Notes under the pieces: model-generated
Seen by the model: only the letters and a program-made list of their open reading frames with translations
The model's database searches: none
What the model was told of the DNA's origin: nothing
Part shown: piece after piece, positions 7,398 through 21,380 of the stretch
Numbering within the stretch: the first letter of the stretch is position 1
How the letters are laid out: every line of letters begins with the position of its first letter
Program-made: the position numbers and the translations under genes
From: a virus
DNA length: 34,155 bases
Direction: 5' to 3' (one strand)
Virus record (IMG/VR): IMGVR_UViG_3300044621_000984
Coordinates: 1 to 34,155 of that record

Positions 7398-7876
7398 TAC
7401 GGCTGTGTCCCCTCTGGAGTAGGTTCGTTAGGGACTGCTTCGCCCGTTTCTGGGTCATGAGTGTGATCCTGTGTCTCATCACCATGCTCGTGAATAAACT
7501 CAGCTACTGCTGCATCATAGTCAGCTTCTAGCATTACTTTTACTCTTTCGTCAAAGTCTTTGTAGTAGATGTAGTTCCACCACAAAACAATTTCATTTTG
7601 ACACCATTCAACTTCTGACCAACCCTTTACAGGCCAAGGTTCTGCATGATTAAATTCATTTAATTGGACTAAAGTCATAGTGTCCATTTTTGCATCAAGG
7701 TATTTAAGAACATTGTCCATGTGGCTGTAAATAACTTCTGCAGGGATAGAAGGTAGCTCACTCTCGTTACCCACATTAATTACAGTGTGAGATTCTTCTC
7801 CGCTTTCTGCAACAAATTTTTTACAGATGACAGGACGTTTTTCTGCTTCATAGAAGTTTGGAACGTATTCTATCAT
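7397..7876 (-). CDS. Hypothetical acidic protein following the tail fibre gene
   Basis: A 159-aa protein, unrecognised. It is acidic and rich in aromatic residues in the middle (GWSEVEWCQNEIVLWWNYIYY, about residues 84-104). The last 30 residues are rich in His, Asp, Glu, Pro and Thr and look disordered. The ATG overlaps the stop of the fibre gene (ATGA, 7873-7876). Genes placed directly after a tail fibre often encode fibre assembly chaperones, but I see no motif for that here and offer it only as a possibility. No signal peptide or membrane segment is apparent. Confidence 0.7.
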   Translation of the reverse strand: MIEYVPNFYEAEKRPVICKKFVAESGEESHTVINVGNESELPSIPAEVIYSHMDNVLKYLDAKMDTMTLVQLNEFNHAEPWPVKGWSEVEWCQNEIVLWWNYIYYKDFDERVKVMLEADYDAAVAEFIHEHGDETQDHTHDPETGEAVPNEPTPEGTQP

Positions 7877-9444
7877 TTTGCATCCTTTAGTCGTTGTACT
7901 TCTTCTTTGAGGAAGTCTATCTCAGCTTGTTGGGATTTTAGGAGTTCTATAGCAAGTGTCGAAAGGAGGCCGTAATTTAGAGCAATTGGCTCTTGTTTTT
8001 CATTATATGCAACTATCTCTTCAATGCCTGTTTCAAGAACTTCTTCAGCAATATATCCGTACATCCACTCTCGATTAAGAGCTTGTTGGTCTTGATTAAC
8101 CAAATCTTTGTATTTATATCTTTTTAGCTTAAGATTTAAAATTTTCTTAGGGTCTACTTCATAATCTGTAATTTCTTTTTTGAAGAGCTTACTTGAAGTA
8201 GATACTCCACCAACAATACCTGACACCTGAACACCGTGAAGGTGGCTACCGTCTCTACCTAAGTGGCTGTGACCTGAAAGTGGACCAGAAGCCGTTGTAA
8301 TACTACCGCCTGTAAATGAGTGGCTGTGAGCTGGAACTGTTCCACCGCTGTGGGTGTGGTTTCCAAGAGCAACTTGGTTAGAGCCAGTACCAGTTGGAAT
8401 ACGAGCTATGTTGAGAGTACCACTATCAATTTTTGCTGCAGAAATTTGCGGAATTCTTGCATCGGAAAAAATACCATTTGTAATTTTTGCAGTTGATAGG
8501 TCTGGAATTCTTGCAGTAGAAAAAGCACCAGTAGTAATTTTACCTGCATCTAAATTTGGAATTCTTGCGGCATCAAAAGTTCCAGAAGTAATTTTACTTG
8601 CAGATATGTCTGCAGCTACTCTAATGTTAGTGACTGCTCCTACTGCCAACTTATCACTTGTAATTTGTCCATTAACAATTTGCTCAGTAAGAATAGAACT
8701 ATCTTGAATATGTAGATTTCCTTGAATAGTTTTTGCAGCAATATCTACGCCTTGAATTGTACTTGGAAATATTTTTGCGCTTGTTATTGCATTATCTTGG
8801 ATATTTTCTGTACCAACTGCGTTAGCAGCAAGCTCTGAATTTCCTACAGCATCTAAGGCAATCTCAGAGCTGCCTACAACCTCGGCACCTATCTCTGAAG
8901 AACCAACAGCGTCAGCTGCGATTTCCGATGAGTTGACAGCATCTGAAGCAATCTCGCTGTTTCCTACAGAGTCAGTCTGAAGGTTTTCTGAAGCAGCGGC
9001 GTCTACGCCTAATTCAGAAGCACCAACTGAATCCTGTGAAATTTCGGAAGACCCAATAGCGTCGGTAGCTACTTCATCATTTCCAACAGCGTCGGTAAGA
9101 ATATTTTCTCGGTAAACAGCATCAACTGATAACTCGCTGGTGCTTACAGAGTCTCCTGCAATTTCCGCAGAACCTACAGCATCTGTTGCAATTTCTGAAG
9201 ATCCCACAGAATCGACATCAAGCTGCGAACTACTTATAGCAGAATCAGAAACAAGCTCTCTTGTAATTGACTGAACCATGATTTTGTCTGTGCTGACAAC
9301 TCTTGGAGCAAGGTTGTTTTCATCAACAGCAAAATTGCCTAGTCTAGAAGGTGATGGTCTACTCTCTAGATACTTAATTCTGCGCTGAACATCGGAAATA
9401 GAGCCAGTGATTGTTCTATTTCTACTTCTTCTTCTACTCGCCAA
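7873..9444 (-). CDS. Tail fibre/spike protein with repeat shaft and C-terminal S74-type intramolecular chaperone
   Basis: A 523-aa fibre-type protein. Residues 1-30 are basic (MASRRRSRNR), probably the virion attachment end. Residues 71-240 form 17 decapeptide repeats (consensus GSSEIATDAV). Residues 281-350 form four 18-residue ITSGxFxxARIP repeats. Residues 363-403 carry four HxH motifs, as in metal-binding fibre tips. From about residue 411 it resembles the Peptidase_S74 intramolecular chaperone: candidate Ser418/Lys423 dyad (SSKLFKKEI), the YGYIAEEVLETG block, and a final coiled coil (LLKSQQAEIDFLKEEV). That domain helps trimerise the fibre and then cuts itself off. The start is TTG (9444-9442), overlapping the minor tail gene by 11 nt with a GAGAAAGA-type site upstream; no better start lies before the repeats. 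It is a likely host-recognition protein. Confidence 0.85.
   Translation of the reverse strand: MASRRRSRNRTITGSISDVQRRIKYLESRPSPSRLGNFAVDENNLAPRVVSTDKIMVQSITRELVSDSAISSSQLDVDSVGSSEIATDAVGSAEIAGDSVSTSELSVDAVYRENILTDAVGNDEVATDAIGSSEISQDSVGASELGVDAAASENLQTDSVGNSEIASDAVNSSEIAADAVGSSEIGAEVVGSSEIALDAVGNSELAANAVGTENIQDNAITSAKIFPSTIQGVDIAAKTIQGNLHIQDSSILTEQIVNGQITSDKLAVGAVTNIRVAADISASKITSGTFDAARIPNLDAGKITTGAFSTARIPDLSTAKITNGIFSDARIPQISAAKIDSGTLNIARIPTGTGSNQVALGNHTHSGGTVPAHSHSFTGGSITTASGPLSGHSHLGRDGSHLHGVQVSGIVGGVSTSSKLFKKEITDYEVDPKKILNLKLKRYKYKDLVNQDQQALNREWMYGYIAEEVLETGIEEIVAYNEKQEPIALNYGLLSTLAIELLKSQQAEIDFLKEEVQRLKDAK
8395..8604 (-). repeat. Four 18-residue ARIP repeats in the fibre
   Basis: Residues 281-298, 299-316, 317-334 and 335-350 share the pattern (S/D)xxKITxGxFxxARIPxx. 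The units follow each other without gaps and lie between the decapeptide shaft and the His-rich tip. This type of repeat is common in trimeric fibre beta structures. Confidence 0.85.
8725..9234 (-). repeat. Seventeen tandem decapeptide repeats in the fibre shaft
   Basis: Residues 71-240 are 17 consecutive units of exactly 10 residues, with no insertion or deletion. The consensus is GSSEIATDAV. Position 5 is nearly always Ile or Leu, and position 10 is Val, Ile or Ala in all. The coding period is 30 bp. The last two units are more divergent. Confidence 0.9.
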
Positions 9445-11449
9445 TTGTTTTTATCTTTCTCTTTTTGTCAACTTTCCAGTCGGGAACTAAGACTAAATCT
9501 ACCGTTTCAGGGAATGTAGGACTGTCTGGGACAGACACTTTATAGGACTCGATTTTTCTAATAATTAAATCGTCACGGGGTTCTTGATCATTACCAAGTC
9601 TTTGTCGTATGAACTCATCATCAATAATAATTGAGCACCAATTACCTGGGTTGTAAGAACCAATAAGTGGGGATAGAGAGCCATTGACTTGAATGTTGTA
9701 GGTGCCTATTGGAGGCAGGGATTCGTAAAGATAATCCTGAGCGTACTCAAAGAGAGCATTTTCATCTTCAACTTCGTCTATCTGTTCTACTTGGTCTAAA
9801 AGAGGCCAACTTCTACCCTCTGTATTAGAAAGGTAGCCGCGGACAGCTGCTCCAGCATATGGCTGACTAGCGTCATCGTTCATATCTTCTATACGACCCA
9901 CCACAAAGAATCGAGTAGCGGACTCTTCTGCAGATTCTTCAACAGTAAATGTAAGAATATTTCCTGGATACTCAAAAACTAATTTATCAGCGCCAACTTC
10001 TTCTGCGGTGTAGTAATCACCATTAGCTGGCTCAAATTCAATGTCTGCAGAGAAAACTTCAAACTTTCTTGTAAAGCTGACAGTGTCGTAGTCGTAGTCG
10101 CAATCGATGCGGTACTCAAAAGCGCCTTCTACAGAGTTTGAATAATCTTCTAAAATTTCTCCAACTGTTTTATTTTGATACCCTCTAAAAGTAAGAGTAT
10201 CTCTGTAGTAGCCACTTTTAATTGAACTATCAAGAGCAATACCAATGTCAGAATTTGCAAGATAACTTCCAAAGTCACCATAACTTACTTTGGCACCCAT
10301 TGTCACTGTACCGCCAGACACTGGCCTAAAATCTGTCAATACGGCACCAGTTACGTATCTAATTTTATTAGTTGCTGGGACACTACTGATAACTTGACGA
10401 CCGTCATAAGTAGTATCTAGAACCCCTGCAAAAAACGAATCAACGCCTTTTACAACAACAGAAGAACCAACAATCGAGTTATGTGTTCTATCTAATGTAA
10501 GCTCTGCTACACCAACATTGTCCATTGATCTAGACACTACGTTATAAGTTTGAAGTCCTCCAACGGCACTAGCTGGAACATCTGGACCGTTCAATACATA
10601 TCTAAAAGTTGTTGGAGTGGGAACTTCAGTTACAAAGTGAGTGCCCTCTAAATTTGAACCAATCTCGTATAAAGATACTTCTTGTCCAACAATAATGTCG
10701 TGCTCTTTTTCTGTAGTAATAGTCACTACGTTTGCAGAGCGCTCTTTTTTAACTACTGGAACATCATAATCTTTGGCAGGTCTAATAGCTTCATTAGCAA
10801 AATTAATTCCTCCCAAATCTGTGTTAATTCTATAGACCAAATCACGAGCAACATCAAAAGTATCTGCTAATAATCTACAAGCACCAGAAGTGCTAGTTCC
10901 TGAGGTGTTAGCTGAAGTGCTCAGATATTGAAATTGATTTGAAGCAGTGATATTTGTAATCTCATGAGTCCCATTTACTGCAGGGTTAACTGTGCTAATG
11001 CTTATATTTTGACCTTTTGCAAACCCGTGAGGCCCATCTGTAGTTATTGTTCCTACACCATTAGAGACAGAATAGTTAGTAACTCCAATAAACTCAGAGC
11101 CGTAAACAATAGTTTGCCAAATATTTCTATGGTAGAGATAGCTGATAAATTCGGCTCCATCTACTGTTAATTCTTGACTCCGAACATCATAGCTGCGAGA
11201 CCAAATAATTCCACCCCAGACGCAGACGCCGTTGCGCATAATGTAGATACCAGTTCTGCCCGGCATTGTTGCTTCATATAAATCTAAGGCTTTTGTAGTT
11301 TCAATAAATGGGATAGTCCCAGAAAAAGCACCAGCTTTTCTATTTACTCTCTCATAAGAAACATTCTTAAAAGGAACCTCGGAAATAACAGTATTAGTCA
11401 ATAAATCTGTTAAGTAGTATCGGTATTCGACATTAGTCTGTAGTGTCAC
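9434..11449 (-). CDS. Minor tail protein (baseplate hub-like) with three inserted repeat domains
   Basis: A 671-aa protein from the preferred GTG at 11449. AAAGGA lies 8 nt upstream of this GTG. The longer frame from a TTG at 11476 (680 aa) has no such site and would overlap the Dit gene by 13 nt. The body has features of siphophage hub proteins: an N-terminal domain ending in VWGGIIWSRSYDV at about 77-89, a central region with GYQNKTVGEILEDYSNSVEGAFEYRID at about 423-449, and a C-terminal region with a GNWCSIIIDDEFI segment. Three copies of a repeat domain found in two other virion proteins interrupt the body at about residues 124-191, 238-301 and 308-386. It lies between Dit and fibre, where the hub and tail-associated lysin usually are. 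No peptidoglycan hydrolase motif was seen. Confidence 0.82.
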   Translation of the reverse strand: MTLQTNVEYRYYLTDLLTNTVISEVPFKNVSYERVNRKAGAFSGTIPFIETTKALDLYEATMPGRTGIYIMRNGVCVWGGIIWSRSYDVRSQELTVDGAEFISYLYHRNIWQTIVYGSEFIGVTNYSVSNGVGTITTDGPHGFAKGQNISISTVNPAVNGTHEITNITASNQFQYLSTSANTSGTSTSGACRLLADTFDVARDLVYRINTDLGGINFANEAIRPAKDYDVPVVKKERSANVVTITTEKEHDIIVGQEVSLYEIGSNLEGTHFVTEVPTPTTFRYVLNGPDVPASAVGGLQTYNVVSRSMDNVGVAELTLDRTHNSIVGSSVVVKGVDSFFAGVLDTTYDGRQVISSVPATNKIRYVTGAVLTDFRPVSGGTVTMGAKVSYGDFGSYLANSDIGIALDSSIKSGYYRDTLTFRGYQNKTVGEILEDYSNSVEGAFEYRIDCDYDYDTVSFTRKFEVFSADIEFEPANGDYYTAEEVGADKLVFEYPGNILTFTVEESAEESATRFFVVGRIEDMNDDASQPYAGAAVRGYLSNTEGRSWPLLDQVEQIDEVEDENALFEYAQDYLYESLPPIGTYNIQVNGSLSPLIGSYNPGNWCSIIIDDEFIRQRLGNDQEPRDDLIIRKIESYKVSVPDSPTFPETVDLVLVPDWKVDKKRKIKTIGE
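10292..11080 (-). repeat. Three copies of the HGF-type repeat domain in the minor tail protein
   Basis: Copies lie at 10877-11080, 10547-10738 and 10292-10528. Each shows a TxTT strand, then H(G/D/N)xxxxG, then (F/L)xGxxxI and P(T/A)xxxF/I-R-Y. The first ends with HGFAKGQ and NGTHEIT, the second with HDIIVGQ and EGTHFVT. The third is the most diverged and carries a short insertion. Confidence 0.8.
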
Positions 11450-11463
11450 TAGAGGAGTCCTTT

Positions 11464-13791
11464 TTATCCAAGCCAACCAGATCGATAGTAGATGCGAAGA
11501 CTAGCATCTCCATTTGTATCTCCACCGTCAATAAACTCAATTTCGTTATTTCCTGGAGCTAGTTCAATAAAATCTGCTAGAACGTCAATTCTTCCCCGAG
11601 CGCCATCAACTACACCATTAAAAGCAACTTCTCGATTTTTTGTGTCAATTTCTAATACGTCTGCACTAAGAGTTGCAGTTGCATTAGCAATACCTGGAGT
11701 AAATATAACGTCATTCTTTTTAATCGCTTTTCCGCTTGCTAAAGTTTTTGGAATAGTGTCAGAAACGCTGGCAACTCCATTTGCACCAGAGAATGGGAGG
11801 CTTCCAGAAACTGTAGCAATTCCACTTGGGGTCACTGGTACAGATGTTGCAATACCGAGTAACTCGATAAATACGGTTGTCACCTCTGTGTTTGGAATAT
11901 CGGTTCCAGAAATAACCATTGTAAAAGAGTTAGCAGTTAAAACAGATGCAACAGACCTGACTCCACCACCAAAGGGGGTAGTCCCAGTAAAGGTAAGCTC
12001 TGCTCCTGTGTAAAGCCCGTGGGAACTAACTGTTGTTATGGTGACAATATTTCCAGTTCGTAGATAAGACTTAACTTTTCTTGAGGAAGGCTCAACAAAA
12101 CCAGCGGTCACAGATGTCGGAATTAAGTTAGCAACACTCTTTGTGTAGGCAAAGGTTGTTGTACTAGGCACTGCGGTGATTGTAAATGTTCCGTCATAGC
12201 TAGGGTCTACGCCAGAAATTACTACTTTCTCGCCAACAACGTAGTTGTGAGGAGTGCTAGTCGTAAGAACTACAGTGTTTGAAGAAGCTGATCTAATCGA
12301 AATACTTCTTTCATTAGAAGAGGCTCTCTTAAATTTAAAGCTTGTTGAGGTAGGAATGTCTGTGATTGTGTACGTTCCATTAAAGTATGCGTCAACATTT
12401 GTAATAGAAACAGGCTCACCAATAATAAACCCATGAGCAGCACTAGTGACAAGAGTTGCTACGTTTAGGTTTAATTCTTTACTAATTATTTCTTTAGCGT
12501 TTGTACGAGTTGCAGCATAGCTAAAAGTATTAGAAGTTGTTGCCGTAATTGTGTAAGAACCATCAAATGGTATGCCAGTATTTGAAACAGTGACAGTATC
12601 ACCAATAATAAATTGATGCTCATCTGCGGTAGTTAAAGTTGCAATATTAGAGACAACTACCTTGCCTGTAACAGCTTTAGGCGGAACACGGGTTTTGGCA
12701 TATGTAAATGTAGTTGCGTTTGGGACTCCTGTGATTGTGTATGTTCCATCAAAAAGACTGTCAACTCCAGTAACAGTTATCGAATCATTTGTACCAAAAC
12801 CATGCGCGGCTGCTGTTTCAAGTCTTGCAACACTACTCTGTAAAGACTTTGTTACAACATCATTGATAACGGCTGATTCTGTTTCAAAAGTAAAAGTGGT
12901 GTCTGTAGGAGTAGAAGTAATCAATTGCTGACCATCAAATGGGAATCCAACGTTTGAGATGTAGATTTCATCTCCTACACTAAAATCATGCTTTGCTGTT
13001 GTTGTCATTGTTGCCACATCTACAAGTTTTGTAGTGTCAAAAACAAGCTGCTTATTTACAATGGCTCGAACAATACTTCCCTTTAGAGATTGCGTAATCA
13101 ACATAAGTTTGTCTGTAGTTCTATTGTAAATAGAAGCAGGAGAAATAAGAGGTCCTGTAATTTCTAAAATACATGGGACAGGGTAGTTTCCAATGTTCTG
13201 AACAGCACCAACACCGTTATAACCCGCCTCGTTATTTTTTACAGGAACTTCACCTACGTTGTAACCATCTGGGCTTGCATCGTTCCAAGAGTATTTAATT
13301 GGGTCTGCGGCACGAAGTCCAATCTCAAACTCTGTTCTTCCACGAGCATTTCTTGTGTCAATCTCTACAGAACCACTTAAGCGAACAAAAGATGCTCGAA
13401 TTGGGTCGTTACCAGTTTTAAGCCATGCTCCTTTGTAAACCAAGTCGCAAGCGGCTACAAGCCTATCTCGGGCTGATTCTACTTGGGAAGGATTTTGAAC
13501 TAGGTATACGCCTTTTATTACAAGATCTCTAGCGTTATATCTGCCTTGTACATCATAAGAACCGTCTCCAAAACCACGAGGGATATCAGGCATTTCAGCA
13601 GATGGCATAGTCCACCAGCCTTCAATGTCGGTAATTACCCAAACAACACCTTCGTCATCAATCGTATTAAAAATAAAGTCTCCAAGAATAATGTTTGCTT
13701 GAAGTTTTAATTTTTCAATGTAGTCAGGTTGTAATGGGGTTAATCCTCTATCTACATAAAAGTTTTCTTGTCCTTGGTTATAAGCAGCCAT
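11464..13791 (-). CDS. Distal tail (Dit)-like protein with six inserted repeat domains
   Basis: A 775-aa protein. Residues 1-200 resemble the N-terminal ring domain of siphophage distal tail proteins (MPDIPRGFGDGSYDVQGRY and ARDRLVAACDLV, then RFEIGLRAADP-type strands). Residues 706-775 (EIDTKNREVAFNG, then FIELAPGNNEIEF) match the closing strands of the Dit galectin-like domain. Residues 247-641 are six repeat domains inserted in this C-terminal domain. A Gly/Ser/Val-rich stretch (642-690) links them to the end. A canonical Dit is about 250-300 aa, so roughly 450 residues are extra. It follows the tape measure by one nucleotide, the normal place for Dit, and precedes the hub protein. It would form the ring joining tail tube and tip, with the repeats projecting outward. 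Confidence 0.82.
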   Translation of the reverse strand: MAAYNQGQENFYVDRGLTPLQPDYIEKLKLQANIILGDFIFNTIDDEGVVWVITDIEGWWTMPSAEMPDIPRGFGDGSYDVQGRYNARDLVIKGVYLVQNPSQVESARDRLVAACDLVYKGAWLKTGNDPIRASFVRLSGSVEIDTRNARGRTEFEIGLRAADPIKYSWNDASPDGYNVGEVPVKNNEAGYNGVGAVQNIGNYPVPCILEITGPLISPASIYNRTTDKLMLITQSLKGSIVRAIVNKQLVFDTTKLVDVATMTTTAKHDFSVGDEIYISNVGFPFDGQQLITSTPTDTTFTFETESAVINDVVTKSLQSSVARLETAAAHGFGTNDSITVTGVDSLFDGTYTITGVPNATTFTYAKTRVPPKAVTGKVVVSNIATLTTADEHQFIIGDTVTVSNTGIPFDGSYTITATTSNTFSYAATRTNAKEIISKELNLNVATLVTSAAHGFIIGEPVSITNVDAYFNGTYTITDIPTSTSFKFKRASSNERSISIRSASSNTVVLTTSTPHNYVVGEKVVISGVDPSYDGTFTITAVPSTTTFAYTKSVANLIPTSVTAGFVEPSSRKVKSYLRTGNIVTITTVSSHGLYTGAELTFTGTTPFGGGVRSVASVLTANSFTMVISGTDIPNTEVTTVFIELLGIATSVPVTPSGIATVSGSLPFSGANGVASVSDTIPKTLASGKAIKKNDVIFTPGIANATATLSADVLEIDTKNREVAFNGVVDGARGRIDVLADFIELAPGNNEIEFIDGGDTNGDASLRIYYRSGWLG
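11869..13053 (-). repeat. Six tandem copies of the HGF-type repeat domain in the Dit-like protein
   Basis: Copies are at about residues 247-315, 316-376, 377-437, 438-496, 497-570 and 571-641. The shared pattern is VAT(L/M)TT, three residues, H(G/D/Q/N)F, two residues, G(D/E)xVxV, then (V/T)xxxFxGTYTIT and P(T/S)xTTFxYA. Unit length is about 59-74 residues. The sixth copy is the most diverged (HGLYTGAEL, PFGGG). Confidence 0.9.
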
Positions 13792-13792
13792 T

Positions 13793-16700
13793 TTATGCAG
13801 CTCCTCTTCTCATTTGATAAGCAAGCTGACGTGAAACAAGAGATGCAAGCTCACGTTCATCCATACCAGCAGACGGGTAAACATTCACAGTTACGCCCTT
13901 ACCACTGCCGCCGCTTAAGTAGTCAATCATTGCTTTATCACGCTTTGATAGACCGTTTGGATCTAGTGGTTCTACACGTTCTGGTTTACCAGCTTCTGCA
14001 ATCTGAGCAATTGTGCCTCCTGCAGATGGCATAACAACTCCACCTAGAGCAAGTCTTGGAATTCTAAAATCGAGTTTAGGTACTTGTTTACCTAAGAATG
14101 TTCCGCCACCAAGAGTAAATCCCTTTCCAGCAGCATTGGTGTTCCACCAGTTTTTTGCCTCTTCAAACCCTGACTTAACACCGTCAAACAAGAATCCAAA
14201 AATATTACCTGCTCCATCTTTAAATTTCTTTGGGAGAGTCTTTAAGAAAGCAGGAATGTCTTTTGTGAAGAAATCAGTGACAGCTGTCCAAGCAGTCTTC
14301 ACTCCACCACTTAGGAAGTCCCAAGCGGCTTTTGCTCCATCTGCAAATTTCTTCGGGATTCCTGAAATAAATGGTGCAATTGTTTTTGTGAAGTAGTCAC
14401 TAATAGCTGTAAATGCCTTACTTAGAAGGTCGGTAATCCAGCTCCAGAAATTGGATACATTAGTGATAAATCTCTTTGGGGTGTCGATTAAATAAGGCAA
14501 AAGTGTCTTACTGAACCAGTCTCCAATCTTTGTGAAGAGACCTCCTAGTAAGTCAAAAATCCATAGCCAGAATCCAGATACCAGTTTGATATAAGTTGCA
14601 GGAATAGATATCAAGAATGGAACAAGAGTGTTGGTAAACCAACTACCAATTTTTGTAAAGAGAGTTCCTAGTAAGTCAAAAATCCACAGCCAGAAGCCAG
14701 CTACAAGTTTGATGTACTTTCCAGGAAGACTGACTAAGAATGGAACCAAAGTTTCTGTAAACCATGAGGAAACTTTTGTAAATAGCTCGCTAAACCAAGT
14801 ACCTATTTTGCTACCAAAATCTTTAAAGAATCCAAGAATTTTTGGACCAAACTCTTTAAAGAAGCCAATAATCTTGTCCCAGTTTTCGATGATAAGCGGA
14901 ACTAAAAGAAGAAGAAGTCCAACAGGACCACCAATAAGAGATAAAGCTCTTCCAGCAAATCGTGCAGCTACTCCAACACCACGCAATGCGCCAGCCTTAA
15001 GTTTTGCAGCGATGCTTGTTTTATCCATAGCCATAGCCGTTGAGGTTGCTCTAATACCCAAACTATAGAGTCTTCCTCCCAAAGTTTTAACAGCCATGAC
15101 GTTTCCAGCAACAGCCTTACCAAAGAATGAGACAGCTTTAAATGCAAGTCGGAATGCTCTAATAAAGGCAAATGCACCAGCAGCATAGGCAAGAATCGTT
15201 GAGACGCCTGGAAGCTTGAGGAAGTTATTAAAGACCGTAAAGATTCCGTTTAAGGTGTCGAAGAAAATCTTTATAGCGCCGCTCTCGGTGAGTAGTGACA
15301 CAAACTCTGCAAAAGAAACTACTAACTCACCCAAGGAAGGCAAACTCTTTGCTAGTTCAGTTCCAAGACCATTAAAAATCTCTACTGCTTCAATTAATTT
15401 GTCAACAAAAACACCAAACTCAGGTGTAGCTCCAACTTGTAGAAGACCTTCACCAATCTTTCCAACAAGGGTAAGAATCTTTGTGAAGTTAGTTGTTAGC
15501 CCGTTGAGGAAGGTTGTAAGACCTTCATTATTTTCTCCACCCTTAGTAAAGTTTTTAAACTTGGTGAAGACATCATCAAAATACTTAATGAATATGTCTG
15601 CAGAACCACCAGGAGCAATAACATTGTCAATAATGTCGCCTAAAGCACTAAAGGCTTTTTTGAAGGCTCCTCCAAGACCACTTGTAACTCTTTCAATATC
15701 ATCAAAGAAATCCTTAAGCTCGCCTGTGGCTTGCTTGGCTTTCATAGTCTTTTCGAATGTTTCACCAAGGGTTGCAACCCACTCGCCGAACTTAGTGATT
15801 AGCGGCCCAGCGGCAGCTAGGATGGCAAGCAGTCCTCCATAGAAACCGTTAGCTGCTTTTCCTAAATTCAAAAGAAGAGTGTCATTAGTCTTCCATATAG
15901 ATTCAAGATTTTCTAGGTTTTTAGCTTCAGTAATTGCATTAGAGAACCCAATTGCAATATCTCCAAGAATTCCACCAGTGGTACGAAGTAAAGGTTCAAG
16001 CTTTGGGAAAAGATTATCTACAAGGTTTTGAATTGCAGTTTCTAGCTTTGGAAAAAGAAGTTCACCAGCAGCATCTCTAAGCTTTTTAAACTCATCTTGG
16101 ATACTAATTAAGTATTTAACAAACTTCTGAGCCTCAGGGGATAGGCCAGCAAGAGCATCAGCAAACGCATCTGCTCCAGGACCCTTTTGAGCATCAGCCA
16201 AATCTTGCTCTGCATCTGCAACATCTCGAACAGCTAATGCAATTTGACGATTGATGTCGCGAATTGCTTTGCTCTTAGTTGGATCGTCAGTTGCCTCTCT
16301 TGCAGCATTTGCTGCATCCTTTTCAGCATCTGTGACTGCTTTTAAAGCCTTTGCTTTATCTATTGCAGCATCAACCAAAGACTCCTGAGCATTACGCTGA
16401 GCAGTAATAGCATCTTTAACAGCCTGAGAGCCTTCAACTCCAGCTGCAGTTGCAGCTTTTTCTTCCTTCTTGAGGTCCTTGTTGCGGTCAATTGCTTTAC
16501 GCAAGTTAAGGTCAGCCTCGGCAAACGCAAGCTCTGCTTCTTGGCGAGCACGGGAGTTTGGCGGAAGGTCTTGAACACGCTGAAGCGCATCACGAGCCTT
16601 AATAAATTCAAGACGGGCCCTCTTCTCAGAGATAGCAGCGCCTTCTGTTTCAAATCTAAGTTGCTGTAGCTTTTCTAAAGCATCTTCACGAGCCTTAGTT

Positions 16701-17389
16701 AACTGCTCTGTTGTTCTTTTAGCTGCTTCTTGAGCATCTCTATAGGTGCGCTCAGAACGTGAAGCAGAAATTTTTGCATCAGCAAGATTTTCTTCTGCTT
16801 CCACTTGCCGCTGAGTTAGTTGAGCAAGAAGTTCTGGCTTTGCTTCTGTTTGTAGGCGCTCAAGTTTTAATGAGGCATCAGCTACTCTACGTTTGGCTGC
16901 TGCAATAGCTTTCTCATTGCTAGCAGATGCCTTTTGAGTCTTTAGTCCAGCAGCTAGCGCTTGCGAAACCCCAGAGAAGGCAAGTTTTGCAACAATAGCA
17001 GCCTGAGCCACAGCACTAAGACTTCCAGCTAATACGACTAAACCACCAGTACCCACTGCAGCAGCAGTAGCACCAAGTGTAAGAAGTCCTCCACCAAGAG
17101 CACCAACGGCTCCAGCAAGTCCAGTAAATGCTGGAGCTAAGAAATAGCCTGTAGTAATTAATTTATCTAATCTGAGACGGGCTTCTTCAGCTTCTTTTCT
17201 AAATTTAGAGCCAAAAAGTCCGTTGCGCTCTGACCCACCGCTGGCTAATCCTTTTGAAAAGGAATCAGAAATATTACGACCAGCATCTTCACCAATACCA
17301 TCTAAGCCTTCAAAGGCTCTTTGGATATCAGGGCGGACGCGGTTGGTAATAGCACGGACAATGACGTGCGCTTCACCTACTACTGCCAT
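13793..17389 (-). CDS. Tape measure protein
   Basis: A 1198-aa protein, the longest of the tail block, placed just after the tail assembly chaperones. Residues 78-150 are hydrophobic and Gly/Ala-rich, with possible membrane segments. Residues 155-400 are a long charged, Ala-rich coiled-coil region. A hydrophobic segment lies at about 815-835 (GGPVGLLLLLVPLIIENW). Five 41-residue repeats fill 870-1074. The C-terminus (GGVVMPSAGGTIAQIAEAGKP, then QLAYQMRRG) is typical of actinophage tape measures. At about 1.5 angstrom per residue the predicted tail is near 180 nm. The ATG at 17389 has AGGAGGTGATAGCAC before it, a very strong ribosome site. No lysozyme or peptidase motif was seen inside the protein. 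Confidence 0.95.
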   Translation of the reverse strand: MAVVGEAHVIVRAITNRVRPDIQRAFEGLDGIGEDAGRNISDSFSKGLASGGSERNGLFGSKFRKEAEEARLRLDKLITTGYFLAPAFTGLAGAVGALGGGLLTLGATAAAVGTGGLVVLAGSLSAVAQAAIVAKLAFSGVSQALAAGLKTQKASASNEKAIAAAKRRVADASLKLERLQTEAKPELLAQLTQRQVEAEENLADAKISASRSERTYRDAQEAAKRTTEQLTKAREDALEKLQQLRFETEGAAISEKRARLEFIKARDALQRVQDLPPNSRARQEAELAFAEADLNLRKAIDRNKDLKKEEKAATAAGVEGSQAVKDAITAQRNAQESLVDAAIDKAKALKAVTDAEKDAANAAREATDDPTKSKAIRDINRQIALAVRDVADAEQDLADAQKGPGADAFADALAGLSPEAQKFVKYLISIQDEFKKLRDAAGELLFPKLETAIQNLVDNLFPKLEPLLRTTGGILGDIAIGFSNAITEAKNLENLESIWKTNDTLLLNLGKAANGFYGGLLAILAAAGPLITKFGEWVATLGETFEKTMKAKQATGELKDFFDDIERVTSGLGGAFKKAFSALGDIIDNVIAPGGSADIFIKYFDDVFTKFKNFTKGGENNEGLTTFLNGLTTNFTKILTLVGKIGEGLLQVGATPEFGVFVDKLIEAVEIFNGLGTELAKSLPSLGELVVSFAEFVSLLTESGAIKIFFDTLNGIFTVFNNFLKLPGVSTILAYAAGAFAFIRAFRLAFKAVSFFGKAVAGNVMAVKTLGGRLYSLGIRATSTAMAMDKTSIAAKLKAGALRGVGVAARFAGRALSLIGGPVGLLLLLVPLIIENWDKIIGFFKEFGPKILGFFKDFGSKIGTWFSELFTKVSSWFTETLVPFLVSLPGKYIKLVAGFWLWIFDLLGTLFTKIGSWFTNTLVPFLISIPATYIKLVSGFWLWIFDLLGGLFTKIGDWFSKTLLPYLIDTPKRFITNVSNFWSWITDLLSKAFTAISDYFTKTIAPFISGIPKKFADGAKAAWDFLSGGVKTAWTAVTDFFTKDIPAFLKTLPKKFKDGAGNIFGFLFDGVKSGFEEAKNWWNTNAAGKGFTLGGGTFLGKQVPKLDFRIPRLALGGVVMPSAGGTIAQIAEAGKPERVEPLDPNGLSKRDKAMIDYLSGGSGKGVTVNVYPSAGMDERELASLVSRQLAYQMRRGAA
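14168..14782 (-). repeat. Five tandem 41-residue repeats in the tape measure protein
   Basis: Residues 870-910, 911-951, 952-992, 993-1033 and 1034-1074 align without gaps. Shared features: (F/W)T at the start, WF or YF at positions 7-8, P at 14, P at 20, and a Trp/Phe-rich second half. The first two units are nearly identical (GFWLWIFDLLG); the last two replace this with KKFxDGA. The coding period is 123 bp. Confidence 0.9.
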
Positions 17390-17411
17390 GTGCTATCACC
17401 TCCTATTTCAA

Positions 17412-17849
17412 TTAGCCGAGCGGTGCGTCTAGAGTTCTGCCAAACGGAGTTGCCGCATCTGGGTCAAACTCTGTTGGCGGTACATATGGTTTTGTTACGT
17501 TATTTGATGGATCAAATGGAACTAGATCATCGTAAGAAGGCGAACTAGATGCGTTATTAGAAGATTTAATTCCTGCATCTATTCTGTACTTGTAAGTCGT
17601 GCCATACAACGTTCTGTAGATCACTGAACGAGACTCTGACTTTGCTGCTACTTGTTCTTGAGAAACAATGTTTAAATCTTCCTCAAAATAGTAGTGAAGG
17701 ACGTCGACCATATCAGCCGCATCCATCTCAACTAGTTTCAGCCCGCTCACAAGTGCTTTCCCATTAACGTAAGGCCAGAGATCTACTGCCCACTCGATGA
17801 AGGCTCTGGCTGCTGCGTAGGGCGGCTTGAATACTCCTCTACAAGCCAC
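17412..17849 (-). CDS. Tail assembly chaperone, T-type second frame (probably expressed as G-T by -1 frameshift)
   Basis: An overlapping frame of up to 145 aa in the -1 frame relative to the upstream chaperone gene. It is open from 17858 and ends at TAA 17412-17414. A GTG at 17849 could start it, but no good ribosome site precedes it, so frameshift expression as a C-terminal extension is more likely. The protein contains AAARAFIEWAVDLW at about residues 12-25 and MVDVLHYYFEEDLN at about 46-59, then a Pro/Asp-rich tail. Position directly before the tape measure, and overlap with a preceding small ORF in the -1 frame, match the G/G-T chaperones of lambda and most siphophages. They hold the tape measure protein and recruit tail tube subunits. 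Confidence 0.8.
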   Translation of the reverse strand: MACRGVFKPPYAAARAFIEWAVDLWPYVNGKALVSGLKLVEMDAADMVDVLHYYFEEDLNIVSQEQVAAKSESRSVIYRTLYGTTYKYRIDAGIKSSNNASSSPSYDDLVPFDPSNNVTKPYVPPTEFDPDAATPFGRTLDAPLG

Positions 17850-18130
17850 GCAGTAATTTCACCAAGAGTATCAACGGTGACGATTTTTTCTGGGTCACTA
17901 AGAAGTGCATTGAACTTAGTCAAGCTCTCTGGAAGGAGAGTTGTTTCAAAAAAATCATTAATGGTACGTGCTACCGCTGCACCATCAGATTCATCTGCAC
18001 CTGCCACGATGTTGAGAAGTACCTTGCCCTGAATTGCTGGGCGACAGTGGAACTCTTCACCGTGAATCTTGAACGAAAGTGGGGAGTACTCCTGAGTACT
18101 TCCACCGAAGTCCTTGAATCGGTTTGTCAT
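17783..18130 (-). CDS. Tail assembly chaperone, G-type first frame
   Basis: A 115-aa protein starting at ATG 18130-18128, preceded by AAGGAAATAGG. Residues 10-30 are strand-rich (SPLSFKIHGEEFHCRPAIQG), and the rest is helical, ending in a short polar tail (PTQQPEPSSSGQ). The size, the N-terminal beta part and the overlap of 67 nt with the next frame fit the G component of the tail chaperone pair. It is not part of the mature virion in known phages. The last dozen codons are where the ribosome would slip to make the longer G-T product. Confidence 0.82.
   Translation of the reverse strand: MTNRFKDFGGSTQEYSPLSFKIHGEEFHCRPAIQGKVLLNIVAGADESDGAAVARTINDFFETTLLPESLTKFNALLSDPEKIVTVDTLGEITAWLVEEYSSRPTQQPEPSSSGQ
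17816..17824 (-). other. Candidate -1 ribosomal frameshift site
   Basis: Frame-0 codons here are CGC CCT ACG. Slipping by -1 on CCT lets a proline tRNA re-pair on CCC, and reading continues as CCC TAC GCA in the second chaperone frame. This gives a join SSRP to YAAARAF. No standard X XXY YYZ heptamer exists between 17858 and the frame-0 stop at 17783, so this is a best guess for the site, not a recognised signal. Confidence 0.3.
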
Positions 18131-18155
18131 CCTATTTCCTTTGTTTGTGTCGTTG

Positions 18156-18175
18156 CCTATTACATTTGTAATAGG
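18156..18175 (-). repeat. Perfect inverted repeat upstream of the tail chaperone gene
   Basis: CCTATTAC and GTAATAGG (18156-18163, 18168-18175) form an 8-bp perfect stem with a 4-nt loop. It lies in the 53-nt gap between the HK97 gp10-like gene and the tail chaperone start. No U-run follows on the minus strand, so it may be a mild attenuator or an mRNA processing point rather than a terminator. Confidence 0.5.
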
Positions 18176-18183
18176 TTTATATT

Positions 18184-18576
18184 TTACCCTGCCAACCTAA
18201 GGTTATCTGTGAGATAACGGTTCGGTTTCGTGCCAGGGTGCTTCACCACGTGGGCAAAGACAACTTGTCCTTTTGTTTGGAACTTAAGCATGTGTCTGCG
18301 AGTTGGTCTAATTATGTGGGGTGATGTACCGTCATGGTGTGCCCTCGCGTAGTTCAAATTTGAACCAACTCGAACATACTGACCTCGAGTGTCAGAAAAA
18401 TGACGCATGTGGAGAGAGGCACGAAGTGCTCCAGTTTGCACACCAACTTGAGATTTAGCCCCCGCTAAAACTCTTAGGCCGCGTTGTTTTAAATCTCTTC
18501 CAATAGGCCCATTTTGACTTCTAAGCAGATACTCCATACCTACTTTGTTTTCAATAAAAATTACATTTTTAGGCAT
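18184..18576 (-). CDS. HK97 gp10-like tail completion / connector protein
   Basis: A 130-aa basic protein of the HK97 gp10-like family. The marker segment is VGVQTGALRASLHMRHF at about residues 44-60, followed by a strand-turn region with YVRVGSNLNYARAHHDGTSPHII, the usual form of these proteins. They sit at the head-tail junction and are needed for completing the tail before joining. It starts with ATG 18576 one nucleotide after the preceding stop. Its length and position between the terminator-like protein and the tail chaperone are normal for the family. Confidence 0.75.
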   Translation of the reverse strand: MPKNVIFIENKVGMEYLLRSQNGPIGRDLKQRGLRVLAGAKSQVGVQTGALRASLHMRHFSDTRGQYVRVGSNLNYARAHHDGTSPHIIRPTRRHMLKFQTKGQVVFAHVVKHPGTKPNRYLTDNLRLAG

Positions 18577-18577
18577 T

Positions 18578-19084
18578 TTATGGAACCGCCATCGTGATAG
18601 TCATACGAGTTGTTTGATATCCACCCTCAGGAGGTGCAGAATCAACAGTTGCAATAACTCCCATACCGTAGGGACCATTGGTTGCCCACGAATCAAACTG
18701 ATTAATGCTCTCCATTAAAATCCACGCATCATATGCTGCAACCACTGCTGCTTCTTGAATGTCATCTGCAAGTGGAGGTTGCCCATTATTCTGCAAAATT
18801 GGAACAGAACGGGAAACTGAAATATTTAAAGTAACGCTTCTTGGGTCATTACAACGGCGTGGCTCTGTGGCTTCATCGCCTGGAGTTCCTACATACATTT
18901 GAATCATAGATACAACAAGCTGTTCACAATCGACAGCAGGGGTCGCAATGTTCCAATAGCGACGTGCTGGAAGAGGCATGTCATAAGACTCGTATACAGT
19001 GATGACTCTGTTGAGAACATCTTGCATCAAATTAGCTAGGTTCTTAGCGTCATTTGACACACCAGTAACATTTGGAAGTGCCAT
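18578..19084 (-). CDS. Probable tail terminator protein
   Basis: A 168-aa protein with no strongly diagnostic motif. It has an N-terminal helix (DAKNLANLMQDVLNRVITVYES), a strand region (SVTLNISVSRSVP), a central helix (DIQEAAVVAAYDAWILMESI) and a closing strand (YQTTRMTITMAVP). That alpha/beta order and size fit tail terminator proteins, which cap the tail tube and bind the connector. Position, between the adaptor and the HK97 gp10-like protein, supports the call. ATG at 19084 follows GGAGATAGACA. A head-closure (stopper) role is the main alternative. Confidence 0.5.
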   Translation of the reverse strand: MALPNVTGVSNDAKNLANLMQDVLNRVITVYESYDMPLPARRYWNIATPAVDCEQLVVSMIQMYVGTPGDEATEPRRCNDPRSVTLNISVSRSVPILQNNGQPPLADDIQEAAVVAAYDAWILMESINQFDSWATNGPYGMGVIATVDSAPPEGGYQTTRMTITMAVP

Positions 19085-19099
19085 TGTCTATCTCCGTCT

Positions 19100-20239
19100 C
19101 TAAGGTAGGGCTATTGGTGTTACAGGGTTACCAAGCTGATAAATGACGTTGCTAGTCAGTAAGTTAATCACTTCATCGACCTCTGGGTTACCTAAACTTG
19201 GCCGTGTTGCGTATAAATCTAAAATTCCTGGGTCACGAGTTCCAAGAATTGGAAGAAGTTGAGAGTAGTTAAGGCTAAGACGGATTGTTCCTTCAACCCT
19301 GTCTAATACTGCTGCAGTCTCAAATACTGTGCTTATTGTATTAGTATAGTTAGAGACAGTTGTAGATACTGTCCAAGCATTATCTTCTGTCAAGAAGTCA
19401 GCATTCAATTCATCTAGATAATAAACAACTGTTCCACCCTCTTGATTAAAATACAAATCAAATGCAGACAGCTCGAATGCTGGAGCTTGTCCAACAATAC
19501 GACGAGCACGAGGGGTGTCTGGAGAGAATACGCGAGAGCGTGCACGAGCCTTGTCTGGGTTTACAGTCTTGAGAAATAGGTCAATAGCATAAACACCAGT
19601 GCGAAGGTCATCAATAAAATCTTGTGAATCAAGAACTGTGTAAGTAACTCCTTGACGAGAAACCGAGGTCACACGTTGAGGGAGGGCACAGGTGTCGTCG
19701 CCTTCATACAACTTAACAAGTTCAATAGCCAACATACGTGCAGCAGCTCTACCAGCTACTGGAGGTGGGCTTCCGTATGTGTATGTAACTTCTACGTTAG
19801 ATGGAGTCCATGTGGCATTAGGGGTGCCATAAATTGTCGAGTGGTCTGCCAAGTAGTAGGTGCTTGAATCAACAATATCTCCGTCACCTGTGCGAAGAGC
19901 ATGCACTCGAACTACCTTACGACCGCGAAGTCTTACGCGACTATAGGAGGATGTTCCATCTCCTTGATAATCATGGTGAGAGTCAATTCCAAACCCTCCT
20001 TGAGGAAGATTTTCAACCTGACCATTAATAAGAGTAGGAGAATAATTTAAGTGAGAAGCACCAGTACGAAGGTAAGGGTCGTACATTGAAACGTAACGCT
20101 CAGTTACTGTAGTGGTGCCAGAAAACTTACGGCCTGACATAGCCCAGAGCATGTAAGAAGCGGTTTTGACGGCATCATAGGCATAATCAGAGTCAGCGTA
20201 GATACCCAACTCATCTGTTTCAACCCAAAGATTGCTCAT
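19100..20239 (-). CDS. Head-to-tail adaptor-like protein, extended
   Basis: A 379-aa protein. The N-terminus (LWVETDELGIYADSDYAYDA, then KTASYMLWAMSGRKFSG) resembles actinophage proteins annotated as head-to-tail adaptors, which dock under the portal. Classic adaptors of the HK97 gp6 type are only about 110-160 aa, so about 220 residues are extra here. The C-terminal third is strand- and Thr/Ser-rich (WTVSTTVSNYTNTISTVFET) and could be a surface or joining domain. It starts with ATG 20239 after GAAGAAAGGGACGAA and follows a gap with a large hairpin downstream of the major tail protein gene. The assignment rests on the N-terminal third and gene position. Confidence 0.65.
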   Translation of the reverse strand: MSNLWVETDELGIYADSDYAYDAVKTASYMLWAMSGRKFSGTTTVTERYVSMYDPYLRTGASHLNYSPTLINGQVENLPQGGFGIDSHHDYQGDGTSSYSRVRLRGRKVVRVHALRTGDGDIVDSSTYYLADHSTIYGTPNATWTPSNVEVTYTYGSPPPVAGRAAARMLAIELVKLYEGDDTCALPQRVTSVSRQGVTYTVLDSQDFIDDLRTGVYAIDLFLKTVNPDKARARSRVFSPDTPRARRIVGQAPAFELSAFDLYFNQEGGTVVYYLDELNADFLTEDNAWTVSTTVSNYTNTISTVFETAAVLDRVEGTIRLSLNYSQLLPILGTRDPGILDLYATRPSLGNPEVDEVINLLTSNVIYQLGNPVTPIALP

Positions 20240-20268
20240 TTCGTCCCTTTCTTCTCCAGATGTGAATA

Positions 20269-20318
20269 GGGGCGGGCAGGGAACCGAGTGTTAAACACTA
20301 ACGGCATCTGCCCGCCCC
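20269..20318. terminator. Large GC-rich hairpin with nested palindrome after the major tail gene
   Basis: Perfect 11-bp arms GGGGCGGGCAG (20269-20279) and CTGCCCGCCCC (20308-20318). The 28-nt loop contains a 13-nt palindrome, AGTGTTAAACACT (20287-20299). On the plus strand the stem is followed by TTTTT, a textbook intrinsic terminator, yet no plus-strand gene exists. On the minus strand it sits 15 nt after the major tail stop codon and is followed by TATTCACAT. It may end or weaken minus-strand transcription, block antisense RNA, or stabilise the capsid/tail mRNA 3' end. Confidence 0.7.
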
Positions 20319-20333
20319 TTTTTCCTACTATTA

Positions 20334-21380
20334 CTAGGCGGATGGATCCTCAGTCGACGCAATGATGAAGTCGATTGGTAGATCTGGGTTGTAGGCATCA
20401 GAGCCTGGAACGTTATATCCAGTTTCTGAACCTTGGCTATCGAAGTCAGAGACTGCGAGATATCCGCGGTTACGAGTTGCTGAACCAGCTGGGCTTACTG
20501 CTGCTGATGGAACATCAGTTGCTGTCTTAGCAAAACGGAAGGATGTTGGAGTTGGAGCTGCAGTAATTGTGTGAGTTCCGTTGAATGTTGAATCAACGCC
20601 CTCGATGGTTACTGACTGACCAACTTCGAATCCGTGTGCAGAACCTGTTGTAAGGGTTGCAACGTTTGAAGTAAGAGCCTTGTTGGTGACTGTCTTTGTT
20701 GACAAGTCGAACCAGCGGTAGAAGCCCTTTAGTCCTTCTGGAGCCCATGATGCACGAGCGTATGAATATGGACGCTCTGCTGCTACTGGGAACTCCCAGC
20801 GGCCATCTAGACCAGCATTGAACTCAGGGTTTCCAAGACCGTAACCTTCGAATGTGTTTGCAAGCAAACCATTCTCAATTACGCGGTCGCCGCTCTGACG
20901 AAGCTTTGCGTATGGGAATACCCAGTAGAAGTATGGAAGACCAGTTGCACGCTTTCCATCCTTAACTGCGTAAGACCAAACTTCAATTGCAACGCCATTG
21001 CCAGCAGGGTCATCGCCAACGGCTGGTGCGGCCCAACCGACTGACTTGTTGTCAGGTGATGCATAAGAACCAAAATTCTTGCGGAGAAGTAGACCGCCAG
21101 ACATTAGAGCTGAAAGCTCTGAGTCTGGTTCGCAAATCGCGATCTCCATAGTGATGCGCTTTAGTGTGTCTGGGGCCTTGTATGACACGCATACAGTACC
21201 GTCAGCAGACTTTTCAACGATTTCGTCACCCTCTTCATATTCAGGGGTGAATGATGCGCGAAGAAACGCCGAGGTGGTGTAAGAGTCACCTGCTCCATTG
21301 AGCAAGTTACCAGCGGCGTCCAGTCGAGTGACTCGGATCGCCACACCTTGGACGCTAGCCGCGTAGTCCTGTGTAGCCAT
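20334..21380 (-). CDS. Major tail (tube) protein with C-terminal repeat domain
   Basis: A 348-aa protein. Residues 1-225 have the strand-rich pattern of siphophage tube proteins (GVAIRVTRLDAAGN, YEEGDEIVEKSADGT, VEVWSYAV-like and PYFYWVFPYAKL). Residues 229-300 are one copy of the HGF-type repeat (ATLTTGSAHGFEVGQSVTIE, then NGTHTIT and TPTSFRF) found in Dit and hub. C-terminal additions on tube proteins, such as Ig-like domains, commonly decorate the tail surface, so several hundred copies of this domain would be displayed. Residues 301-348 are a short polar tail. ATG at 21380 has AAGGAGCACACTGGA upstream. It lies between the second capsid-like gene and the adaptor. A decoration or head protein role is less likely. 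Confidence 0.75.
   Translation of the reverse strand: MATQDYAASVQGVAIRVTRLDAAGNLLNGAGDSYTTSAFLRASFTPEYEEGDEIVEKSADGTVCVSYKAPDTLKRITMEIAICEPDSELSALMSGGLLLRKNFGSYASPDNKSVGWAAPAVGDDPAGNGVAIEVWSYAVKDGKRATGLPYFYWVFPYAKLRQSGDRVIENGLLANTFEGYGLGNPEFNAGLDGRWEFPVAAERPYSYARASWAPEGLKGFYRWFDLSTKTVTNKALTSNVATLTTGSAHGFEVGQSVTIEGVDSTFNGTHTITAAPTPTSFRFAKTATDVPSAAVSPAGSATRNRGYLAVSDFDSQGSETGYNVPGSDAYNPDLPIDFIIASTEDPSA
20481..20696 (-). repeat. Single HGF-type repeat domain in the major tail protein
   Basis: This codes for residues 229-300. It matches the Dit and hub repeats at the TLTT, HGF, G-x-x-V, VDxxFNGT, IT and PTxTSFRF positions, and like several of them it ends with a DVPSAAV segment (compare DVPASAV in the minor tail protein). 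Confidence 0.88.

What the first reader, a model, noticed from the sequence alone, without database searches (positions are those of the whole stretch)
10292..20696. One repeat domain spread over three tail proteins: ten copies in tube, Dit-like and hub proteins
The pattern TLTT-xxx-HGF-xx-G-xx-V ... FxGTxTIT ... PTxTxF occurs once in the major tail protein, six times in the Dit-like protein and three times in the minor tail protein. It is absent from the tape measure and fibre. This looks like a self-spreading virion surface module, comparable in behaviour to Ig-like decorations but with a different sequence. It may bind host surface or environmental glycans and would be shown along the whole tail.
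Basis: partly seen in the sequence, partly recalled or inferred. Interest (0 to 1): 0.72.

Follow-up and report, generated by a model that had tools for sequence, protein, structure and literature searches.

The report
Repeated barrel module studding phage tail
An uncultured virus, probably of actinobacteria, carries ten copies of one small barrel-shaped protein module on three different tail parts, perhaps as weak sticky pads for sugars, and some relatives appear to multiply the same module by inserting it inside itself like Russian dolls.

Summary
A profile from the Dit copies alone finds the copy in the major tail protein and the three in the hub, far above 1,000 shuffled controls, and none in tape measure or fibre. 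The module is a separate six-stranded barrel (pLDDT 95). Its fold matches the beta-barrel of phage endosialidases and the FCCH domain of ubiquitin E1; weak sequence hits agree. It is accessory: two relatives lack exactly this piece of the tail protein, and copy number varies in Dit (0-8) and hub (2 upwards). Best reading: a surface adhesion module; glycan binding is inferred, not shown. Relatives also carry it in fibre proteins. The window's slots are old, not freshly copied. The unexpected part is in relatives: modules inside the beta3-beta4 loop of modules. In four Microbacterium phages a Dit nest opens in one gene and closes in the next; half-module HMMs count 7 opening and 2+5 closing halves in each, and by eye 8, 8, 7 and 8 of both. 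No nest structure was computed.

The parts
20334..21380 (-). major tail (tube) protein, 348 aa; core about 1-228, module about 232-306, C-terminal tail 309-348
   Evidence: phrog_792 major tail protein E 2e-22; 76% identical to the annotated major tail protein of DSL-LC01
20499..20672 (-). module copy M1 (residues 237-294)
   Evidence: HMM; exact natural absence in DSL-LC01 and G038
11464..13791 (-). Dit-like distal tail protein, 775 aa
   Evidence: SPP1_Dit C-terminal domain PF22768 E 1.1e-7 at 709-773; phrog_5577; relatives with fewer modules
12853..13026 (-). module copy D1 (Dit 256-313)
12667..12840 (-). module copy D2 (Dit 318-375)
12484..12654 (-). module copy D3 (Dit 380-436)
12298..12471 (-). 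module copy D4 (Dit 441-498)
12112..12285 (-). module copy D5 (Dit 503-560)
11881..12060 (-). module copy D6 (Dit 578-637), divergent
9434..11476 (-). tail hub (minor tail protein), 680 aa
   Evidence: phrog_1885 E 1e-30; model matches hubs of Douge Z 11.3, Bxb1 Z 10.4, Mu gp44 Z 9.4
10892..11065 (-). module copy H1 (hub 138-195)
   Evidence: region 127-205 matches E1 FCCH Z 10.8, rmsd 1.7, 75 residues
10565..10741 (-). module copy H2 (hub 246-304)
10322..10519 (-). module copy H3 (hub 320-385), the last before the hub core, with a longer beta3-beta4 loop; nests of relatives lie at this position
   Evidence: relatives
13793..17389 (-). tape measure protein, 1198 aa, no module (named from size, position and relatives)
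7873..9444 (-). fibre with S74 chaperone domain, no module here

Best explanation
The repeat is an accessory domain of about 75 residues (about 62-residue period in tandem) with a six-stranded barrel fold of the endosialidase beta-barrel / E1-FCCH type. It is plugged into loops or tails of three virion proteins: once per tube subunit, as six beads in a loop of the Dit C-terminal domain, and three times in the hub. On the virion it would stand off the surface along the whole tail (6 per ring, roughly 260 in all if the tape measure sets the length) and cluster at the tip (36 on a Dit hexamer, 9 on a hub trimer). Most likely (inferred) it gives weak, many-point contact with surface polysaccharide of the host, keeping the virion near the cell until the specific receptor proteins engage. 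It grows by tandem duplication (beads), by gain and loss at slots, and in relatives by insertion into its own beta3-beta4 loop. Shown: copies, predicted fold, accessory nature, copy variation. Inferred: surface exposure, numbers per virion, glycan binding, actinobacterial host.
For: Homology of the copies. Model of one module, pLDDT 95, from 119 aligned copies. Fold: phi92 endosialidase 257-340 Z 10.4, K1F endosialidase 425-508 Z 9.2, E1 FCCH Z about 10. Pfam End_beta_barrel matches 11 of 119 and E1_FCCH 17 of 119 members at E <= 0.1, best about 6e-5 each; the profile's best PDB sequence hit is phi92 endosialidase (E 0.011, weak). The K1F barrel is one of three polysialic-acid binding sites and a host-discrimination spot (PMC12632334 passages). 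Natural absence in two tail proteins; copy variation. The tail protein copy evolves faster than its core but under constraint: median dN/dS about 0.21 against 0.08 in 300 of 1,596 pairs. A domain of similar fold projects from the tube of T1 (Z 7.3, modest).
Against: No binding data. The 119 aligned modules hold one tryptophan in 9,662 residues and 28% Ser+Thr, unlike sugar modules that use an aromatic platform (recalled). In K1F the barrel was largely tolerant of mutation on the reference host (PMC12632334 passage). E1 FCCH shares the fold without any sugar role known to me, so the fold does not fix the function. Window proteins stay under the E1_FCCH cut-off (22.1 and 14.9 of 29.5 bits). Foldseek E-values against PDB are all above 0.001. 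The T1 match is at a Z that the tool calls common, and no sequence relation was found.
Confidence: 0.6

Rival explanations
1. Structural spacer: the modules are stiff beads that set the reach and shape of the Dit arm and hub and stabilise the tube, with no ligand.
For: Tandem beads of about 62 residues with short linkers; Ser/Thr-rich, almost no Trp; 0 to 8 copies in Dit could be length tuning.
Against: Does not explain a single copy on the tube with clean natural absence, nor the presence in several other large proteins.
Confidence: 0.25
2. Modules bind environmental particles, polymers or mucus-like glycans rather than the host, concentrating virions where hosts live.
For: Related modules occur in other aquatic phages (Prochlorococcus phage tail fibre) and in many uncultured Caudovirales proteins.
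Against: No data; Microbacterium phages, several from soil, carry it on the same proteins.
Confidence: 0.12
3. Selfish spread: the module has no benefit and persists because tandem and nested insertion into permissive surface loops is tolerated.
For: Nest patterns in relatives.
Against: Purifying selection on the tail protein copy, median dN 0.197 against dS 0.946; one copy kept in 80 of 80 close tail proteins.
Confidence: 0.08

Closest known systems
Carbohydrate-binding modules on 936 lactococcal phages (neck, major tail protein extension TpeX, evolved Dit), PMC6669499 (abstract and sections 3.4 and 3.8 seen)
   Same: Accessory modules on tail tube protein and Dit, present or absent between close relatives.
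   Different: The TpeX module is BppA-like and made by a frameshift, and two modules were shown to bind host cells; here the fold differs, the tube copy is encoded in frame, copies come in beads, and binding is not shown.
Mycobacteriophage Douge coated with glycan-binding domains, PMC13033339 (passages seen)
   Same: Actinophage with sugar-binding domains on tube and tip; its hub is the top match of the window's hub model.
   Different: Douge uses Ig-like and several other domains; here one homologous module is repeated on three proteins.
Beta-barrel domain of phage endosialidases (K1F, phi92), Pfam PF12195
   Same: Same fold and weak sequence relation.
   Different: There it is one domain of an enzyme tailspike; here it is a free accessory module without that enzyme.
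FCCH domain of ubiquitin-activating enzyme E1, Pfam PF16190
   Same: Same fold, Z about 10; the 2,853-aa protein of DSL-LC01 passes Pfam's cut-off as a whole-protein score summed over copies, 29.8 against 29.5 bits.
   Different: No E1 catalytic domain among the Pfam hits of these tail proteins.
Tube-surface domain of phage T1 gp41, called Ig-like (PMC11945409, passages seen)
   Same: Fold match Z 7.3 over 76 residues; projects from the tube wall.
   Different: Lies near the N-terminus; no detectable sequence relation; Z is modest.

Membership tests
E1_FCCH (PF16190) | score over Pfam's curated cut-off (29.5 bits) | tested here: not met
   window Dit 22.1, hub 14.9 bits; M1 alone 14.2. A relative's 2,853-aa protein reaches 29.8 as a whole.
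E1_FCCH (PF16190) | six-stranded FCCH barrel fold | tested here: met
   M1 model Z about 10, 77 residues, rmsd 2.1-2.4; hub H1 Z 10.8, rmsd 1.7
Endosialidase beta-barrel (PF12195) | barrel fold of phi92/K1F endosialidase | tested here: met
   Z 10.4 and 9.2, 79 residues, rmsd 2.0-2.1
Endosialidase beta-barrel (PF12195) | sequence profile match | tested here: inconclusive
   11 of 119 members at E <= 0.1, best 5.6e-5; cut-off not shown for these; not among M1's own hits
Endosialidase beta-barrel (PF12195) | binds polysialic acid or another glycan | not testable with these tools
   needs protein
Ig-like tail decoration | Ig-like sequence or fold | tested here: inconclusive
   one of 119 members hits Big_11 (0.023) and one ChiW_Ig_like (0.055), no other Ig family among the 25 of 32 families listed; absence from a fold list does not exclude it
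Evolved Dit | Dit core with a domain inserted in the C-terminal domain | tested here: met
   PF22768 matches only 709-773 (profile 40-97), after the module array; alignment with short Dits
Evolved Dit | inserted domain is a carbohydrate-binding module | not testable with these tools
   binding unknown
Siphophage tail hub | hub fold | tested here: met
   Douge Z 11.3 over 190 residues spanning 15-478, rmsd 3.1; model pLDDT 75, pTM 0.67
Major tail protein | tube fold | not tested
   no model made; filed by phrog_792 and deposited annotation of relatives; sequence profile found no PDB tube protein

The most novel reading that the evidence does not exclude
The module is a self-nesting domain. In relatives of this phage it has been inserted repeatedly into its own beta3-beta4 loop, giving Russian-doll stacks (first halves in a run, then second halves in a run) up to about 6 deep in hubs and 7-8 deep in Dit, with one module inside another in one tube protein. 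In Microbacterium phages the Dit nest is opened in one gene and closed in the next, so that five barrels and the last strand of Dit would be completed in trans by a second polypeptide. The window shows the simple bead form of the same system.
Probability: 0.6. Interest if true: 0.85.

Novelty: new variant of a known kind. Interest (0 to 1): 0.6.

Why it matters
It shows one small barrel fold used as a common accessory module of tube, baseplate ring and hub in a phage group with many metagenomic members (548 stretches encoding a relative of the tail protein core). It offers a fold-level alternative to Ig-like decorations and suggests that at least one published 'Ig-like' tube domain (T1) deserves a second look. 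If the nests are real, they are an unusual way for a protein to grow and a natural case of a domain series shared between two chains. Isolated Microbacterium phages make both claims testable.

Tried and rejected
Rejected: chance repeat; integral part of the core folds. Recent copying between the window's copies: within Dit-hub DNA the longest family is 68 bases at 63-72% identity inside Dit. Gain or loss in the tail protein: the two module-less members group together (98/72) in an unresolved base of the core tree (45 rows), so direction is open. Movement between proteins: on a tree of 102 copies (53 columns) the protein labels need 12 changes against a minimum of 2, but holding the tail protein copies together is not rejected (p-AU 0.319; the hub test did not finish). 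The inner modules of five hubs with a single nest form one clade (SH-aLRT 97, quick tree) and are 51-68% identical to their best tail protein copies of other phages but 46% and 44% to their own phage's copy in the two that could be compared: suggestive of a move, but conserved copies look alike in any case.

The 80 loci are the best of 548, hence close relatives; the 31 records partly repeat their contigs. Hub copy counts undercount nested copies. For the nests, half-module HMMs give balanced counts in the Dit of four phages but not in all hubs: A3Wally 5N/5C, L149 5N/5C, L183 4N/4C, L146 5N/4C, Pumpernickel 5N/4C in the nest run, and Cece 8N/3C over the whole hub (Big4's hub is cut). Only A3Wally and L149 hubs were then read by eye. 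Regular expressions recovered 8N+3C/5C for A3Wally but fewer for Pumpernickel (5N+1C/4C) and Cece (4N+0C/2C), and one of Big4's eight N was the separate Dit copy; eye counts come from the printed sequence. Other weak hits of the window proteins, all under cut-off: FlgK_2nd 2.8e-4, FeoA 0.0011, Prophage_tail 0.076, VgrG_rel 1e-4. No RNA family and no tRNA in the window. Literature: 'E1 FCCH' + phage, FCCH + tail + phage, family accessions and nested/Russian-doll terms listed no paper that I recognised as describing this module in phage tails or self-nested domains; one search listed one that names End_beta_barrel among receptor-binding-protein domains (PMC9230537, table passage).
Full report
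WHAT IS THERE. The window is a 34,155-base virus record with a structural gene run on the minus strand. The three proteins of the finding are the major tail protein (20334-21380), a Dit-like protein (11464-13791) and a hub (9434-11476); PHROGs and Pfam support these names. The tail protein gene lies before the head-tail adaptor gene, an order shared with DSL-LC01, Microbacterium, Gordonia and Arthrobacter (Mimi) phages and Pam4 but not with Arthrobacter phage Ryan. The 130-aa gene nearer the usual tube position matches tail-completion proteins (phrog_5). No solved tube protein was found for the core by sequence, so its name rests on family and annotation. The nearest annotated relatives are DSL-LC01, from Dishui Lake in China, and Microbacterium phages, which makes an actinobacterial host likely but not shown.

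THE REPEAT IS REAL. An HMM from the Dit copies alone finds the other four copies, and an HMM from those four finds the six Dit copies; 1,000 shuffled proteins give nothing better than about 0.06 with the Dit HMM; the tape measure and fibre have none. Over 119 diverse copies the most conserved points are G268 (98%), H249 (97%), T245 (91%) and G254 (87%) in tail protein numbering.

IT IS A SEPARATE MODULE. DSL-LC01's tail protein is 76% identical over the first 223 residues and has the same C-terminal tail but lacks residues ~232-306. Record G038 has the same gap with the same junction. Among the 80 nearest loci 80 of 80 have one copy. Of 31 other records (partly the same contigs), 27 held the tail protein and 25 were read: 23 with one copy, one with none, one with a nested form. 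Dit proteins with 0, 1, 3, 6, 7 or 8 copies exist: in 50 distinct Dit+hub pairs, from 69 of 81 loci with both proteins complete, the (Dit, hub) counts were (6,3) 17, (7,3) 12, (1,2) 9, (1,3) 5, (0,2) 3, (0,3) 2, (3,2) 1, (8,3) 1; another subgroup has Dit 1 and hub 5-6. In Dit the array sits within the C-terminal domain, where evolved Dits carry insertions (recalled). In the hub model (pLDDT 75, 43 sequences) the three copies repeat one strand pattern between parts of a tail-hub core. Five of ten named phage records scanned (three Gordonia, two Arthrobacter) have no module at E <= 0.001.

WHAT FOLD. The model of one copy (119 sequences, pLDDT 95) has six strands. The best matches among solved structures are the beta-barrel of phi92 and K1F endosialidases and the FCCH domain of E1, and weak sequence signals point to the same two (the phi92 sequence hit is at chain positions 197-259 and I take it to be the same domain, numbering not checked). 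The tube proteins of T1 and FCWL1 also match over 76-77 residues (Z 7.3 and 8.0, a range the tool calls common); the T1 authors describe residues 16-94 as an Ig-like domain extending outside the tube (PMC11945409, passages). No sequence relation to T1 was found. In BFVD 22 viral proteins match at E <= 0.001, mostly uncharacterised, with a baseplate wedge subunit (54% identity) first and a baseplate J-like protein among them.

HOW IT PROBABLY WORKS. The related barrel in K1F is a polysialic-acid site; some changes there affect host range, though most are tolerated on the reference host (PMC12632334, passages). Other phages carry sugar-binding domains on tube and tip with shown host binding (PMC6669499; PMC13033339 passages). 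By analogy the module would give many weak contacts. A tape measure of 1,198 residues at about 1.5 A per residue (recalled) and a ring rise of 42 A give about 43 rings and 260 tube copies; the same sum for T1 (957 residues) gives 34 rings, as published. Dit and hub would add 36 and 9 if they are a hexamer and a trimer (recalled for this class). Against: almost no tryptophan (1 in 9,662 residues) and no binding data. The tail protein copy has a dN/dS about 2.6 times that of the core but stays well under 1 (57 distinct metagenomic proteins, 300 of 1,596 pairs sampled within 88-99.5% core identity; 280 and 299 usable). This fits a surface domain better than a fast-changing receptor-binding tip.

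HOW IT SPREADS. Slots are mostly inherited in place: the D2 and D3 copies of nine phages and D1 copies of eight of them form supported clades. So the window's set is old. In the wider group the module also enters the gene after the hub (12 of 80 loci) and giant proteins next to collagen-like genes. The close relative G001 has 14 matches: 1 tail protein, 6 Dit, 3 hub, 1 in an 895-aa and 3 in a 2,034-aa frame. DSL-LC01, which lacks it on the tube, has 12 matches in a 2,853-aa protein, one of them partial.

RUSSIAN DOLLS. In some relatives the module appears as a run of first halves (about 36-residue period) followed by a run of second halves (about 40). HMMs for the two halves give no hit in 500 shuffled proteins. 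Of 225 distinct ORFs with two or more halves, 208 show beads or other orders, 6 show N N C C and 11 show longer N-runs followed by C-runs. In two of the six that I read (L155, L179) a complete module lies in the beta3-beta4 loop of the last module before the hub core. The third hub module of L030 and L071 holds a different repeat in that loop. One tube protein (G019) has a module inside its module, with weak scores of 15-19 bits for the parts. In the hubs of A3Wally and L149 I count six first and six second halves by eye (HMM: five and five), L149 with two further complete modules between.

THE SPLIT DIT. In four Microbacterium phages the run of first halves starts after the Dit core, and the run of second halves goes on in the next gene, which ends like the missing last strand of Dit (VRFRSGWSG, VRFRSGWSG, IKFRSGWAG, VRYRSGWAG; the window's Dit ends IYYRSGWLG), while the first gene ends without it. 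The HMMs count, beyond the Dit core, 7 first halves and 2 + 5 second halves in each of the four. By eye an innermost complete module is added in three: 8 = 3+5 (A3Wally, Big4, Cece) against 7 = 2+5 (Pumpernickel), which lacks that innermost module and stays balanced, as nesting demands and separate arrays would not. These cases share ancestry and are few independent events. No structure of a nest was computed, so the nested fold and its completion by a second chain are inferred.

VERDICT. The reading as a separate, repeated surface module outside the Ig families is mostly right; 'self-spreading' fits the group but is not recent in this window; glycan binding remains a reasonable guess. For the window alone this is a new variant of a known kind (accessory tail modules). 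The nests in relatives could be something new.

Noticed in passing
L096 26485-32663 (A3Wally genes 98-99) and the same genes in L092, L093, L095: Dit appears split over two genes, with nested half-modules opened in the first and closed in the second, which also carries the Dit's last strand.
   Followed up: partly
L198 (G019 tail protein, 439 aa): One module apparently inserted in the loop of another within a tube protein.
   Followed up: partly
L030 and L071 hubs, third module: A different repeat (about 65 residues) inserted in the same beta3-beta4 loop.
   Followed up: no
window 20334-21380 and 19100-20239: The major tail protein gene lies before the head-tail adaptor gene, an order shared with related Gordonia, Microbacterium and cyanobacterial phages.
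   Followed up: partly
L101 97-12911 (close relative of the window): A cluster with a subtilase-family protein, a collagen-repeat protein, a 2034-aa and an 894-aa protein, the last two holding the module.
   Followed up: partly
T1 gp41 residues 17-99 (PDB 9l0f): The published Ig-like tube domain matches the endosialidase-barrel/FCCH model over 76 residues at modest Z; its classification may deserve a check.
   Followed up: partly
window 21416-22306 and 22359-24452: Two proteins in a row at the capsid position (296 aa, phrog_779 of unknown function; 697 aa, major head protein); relatives annotate the larger as hexamer protein, so the smaller may be a pentamer or decoration protein.
   Followed up: no
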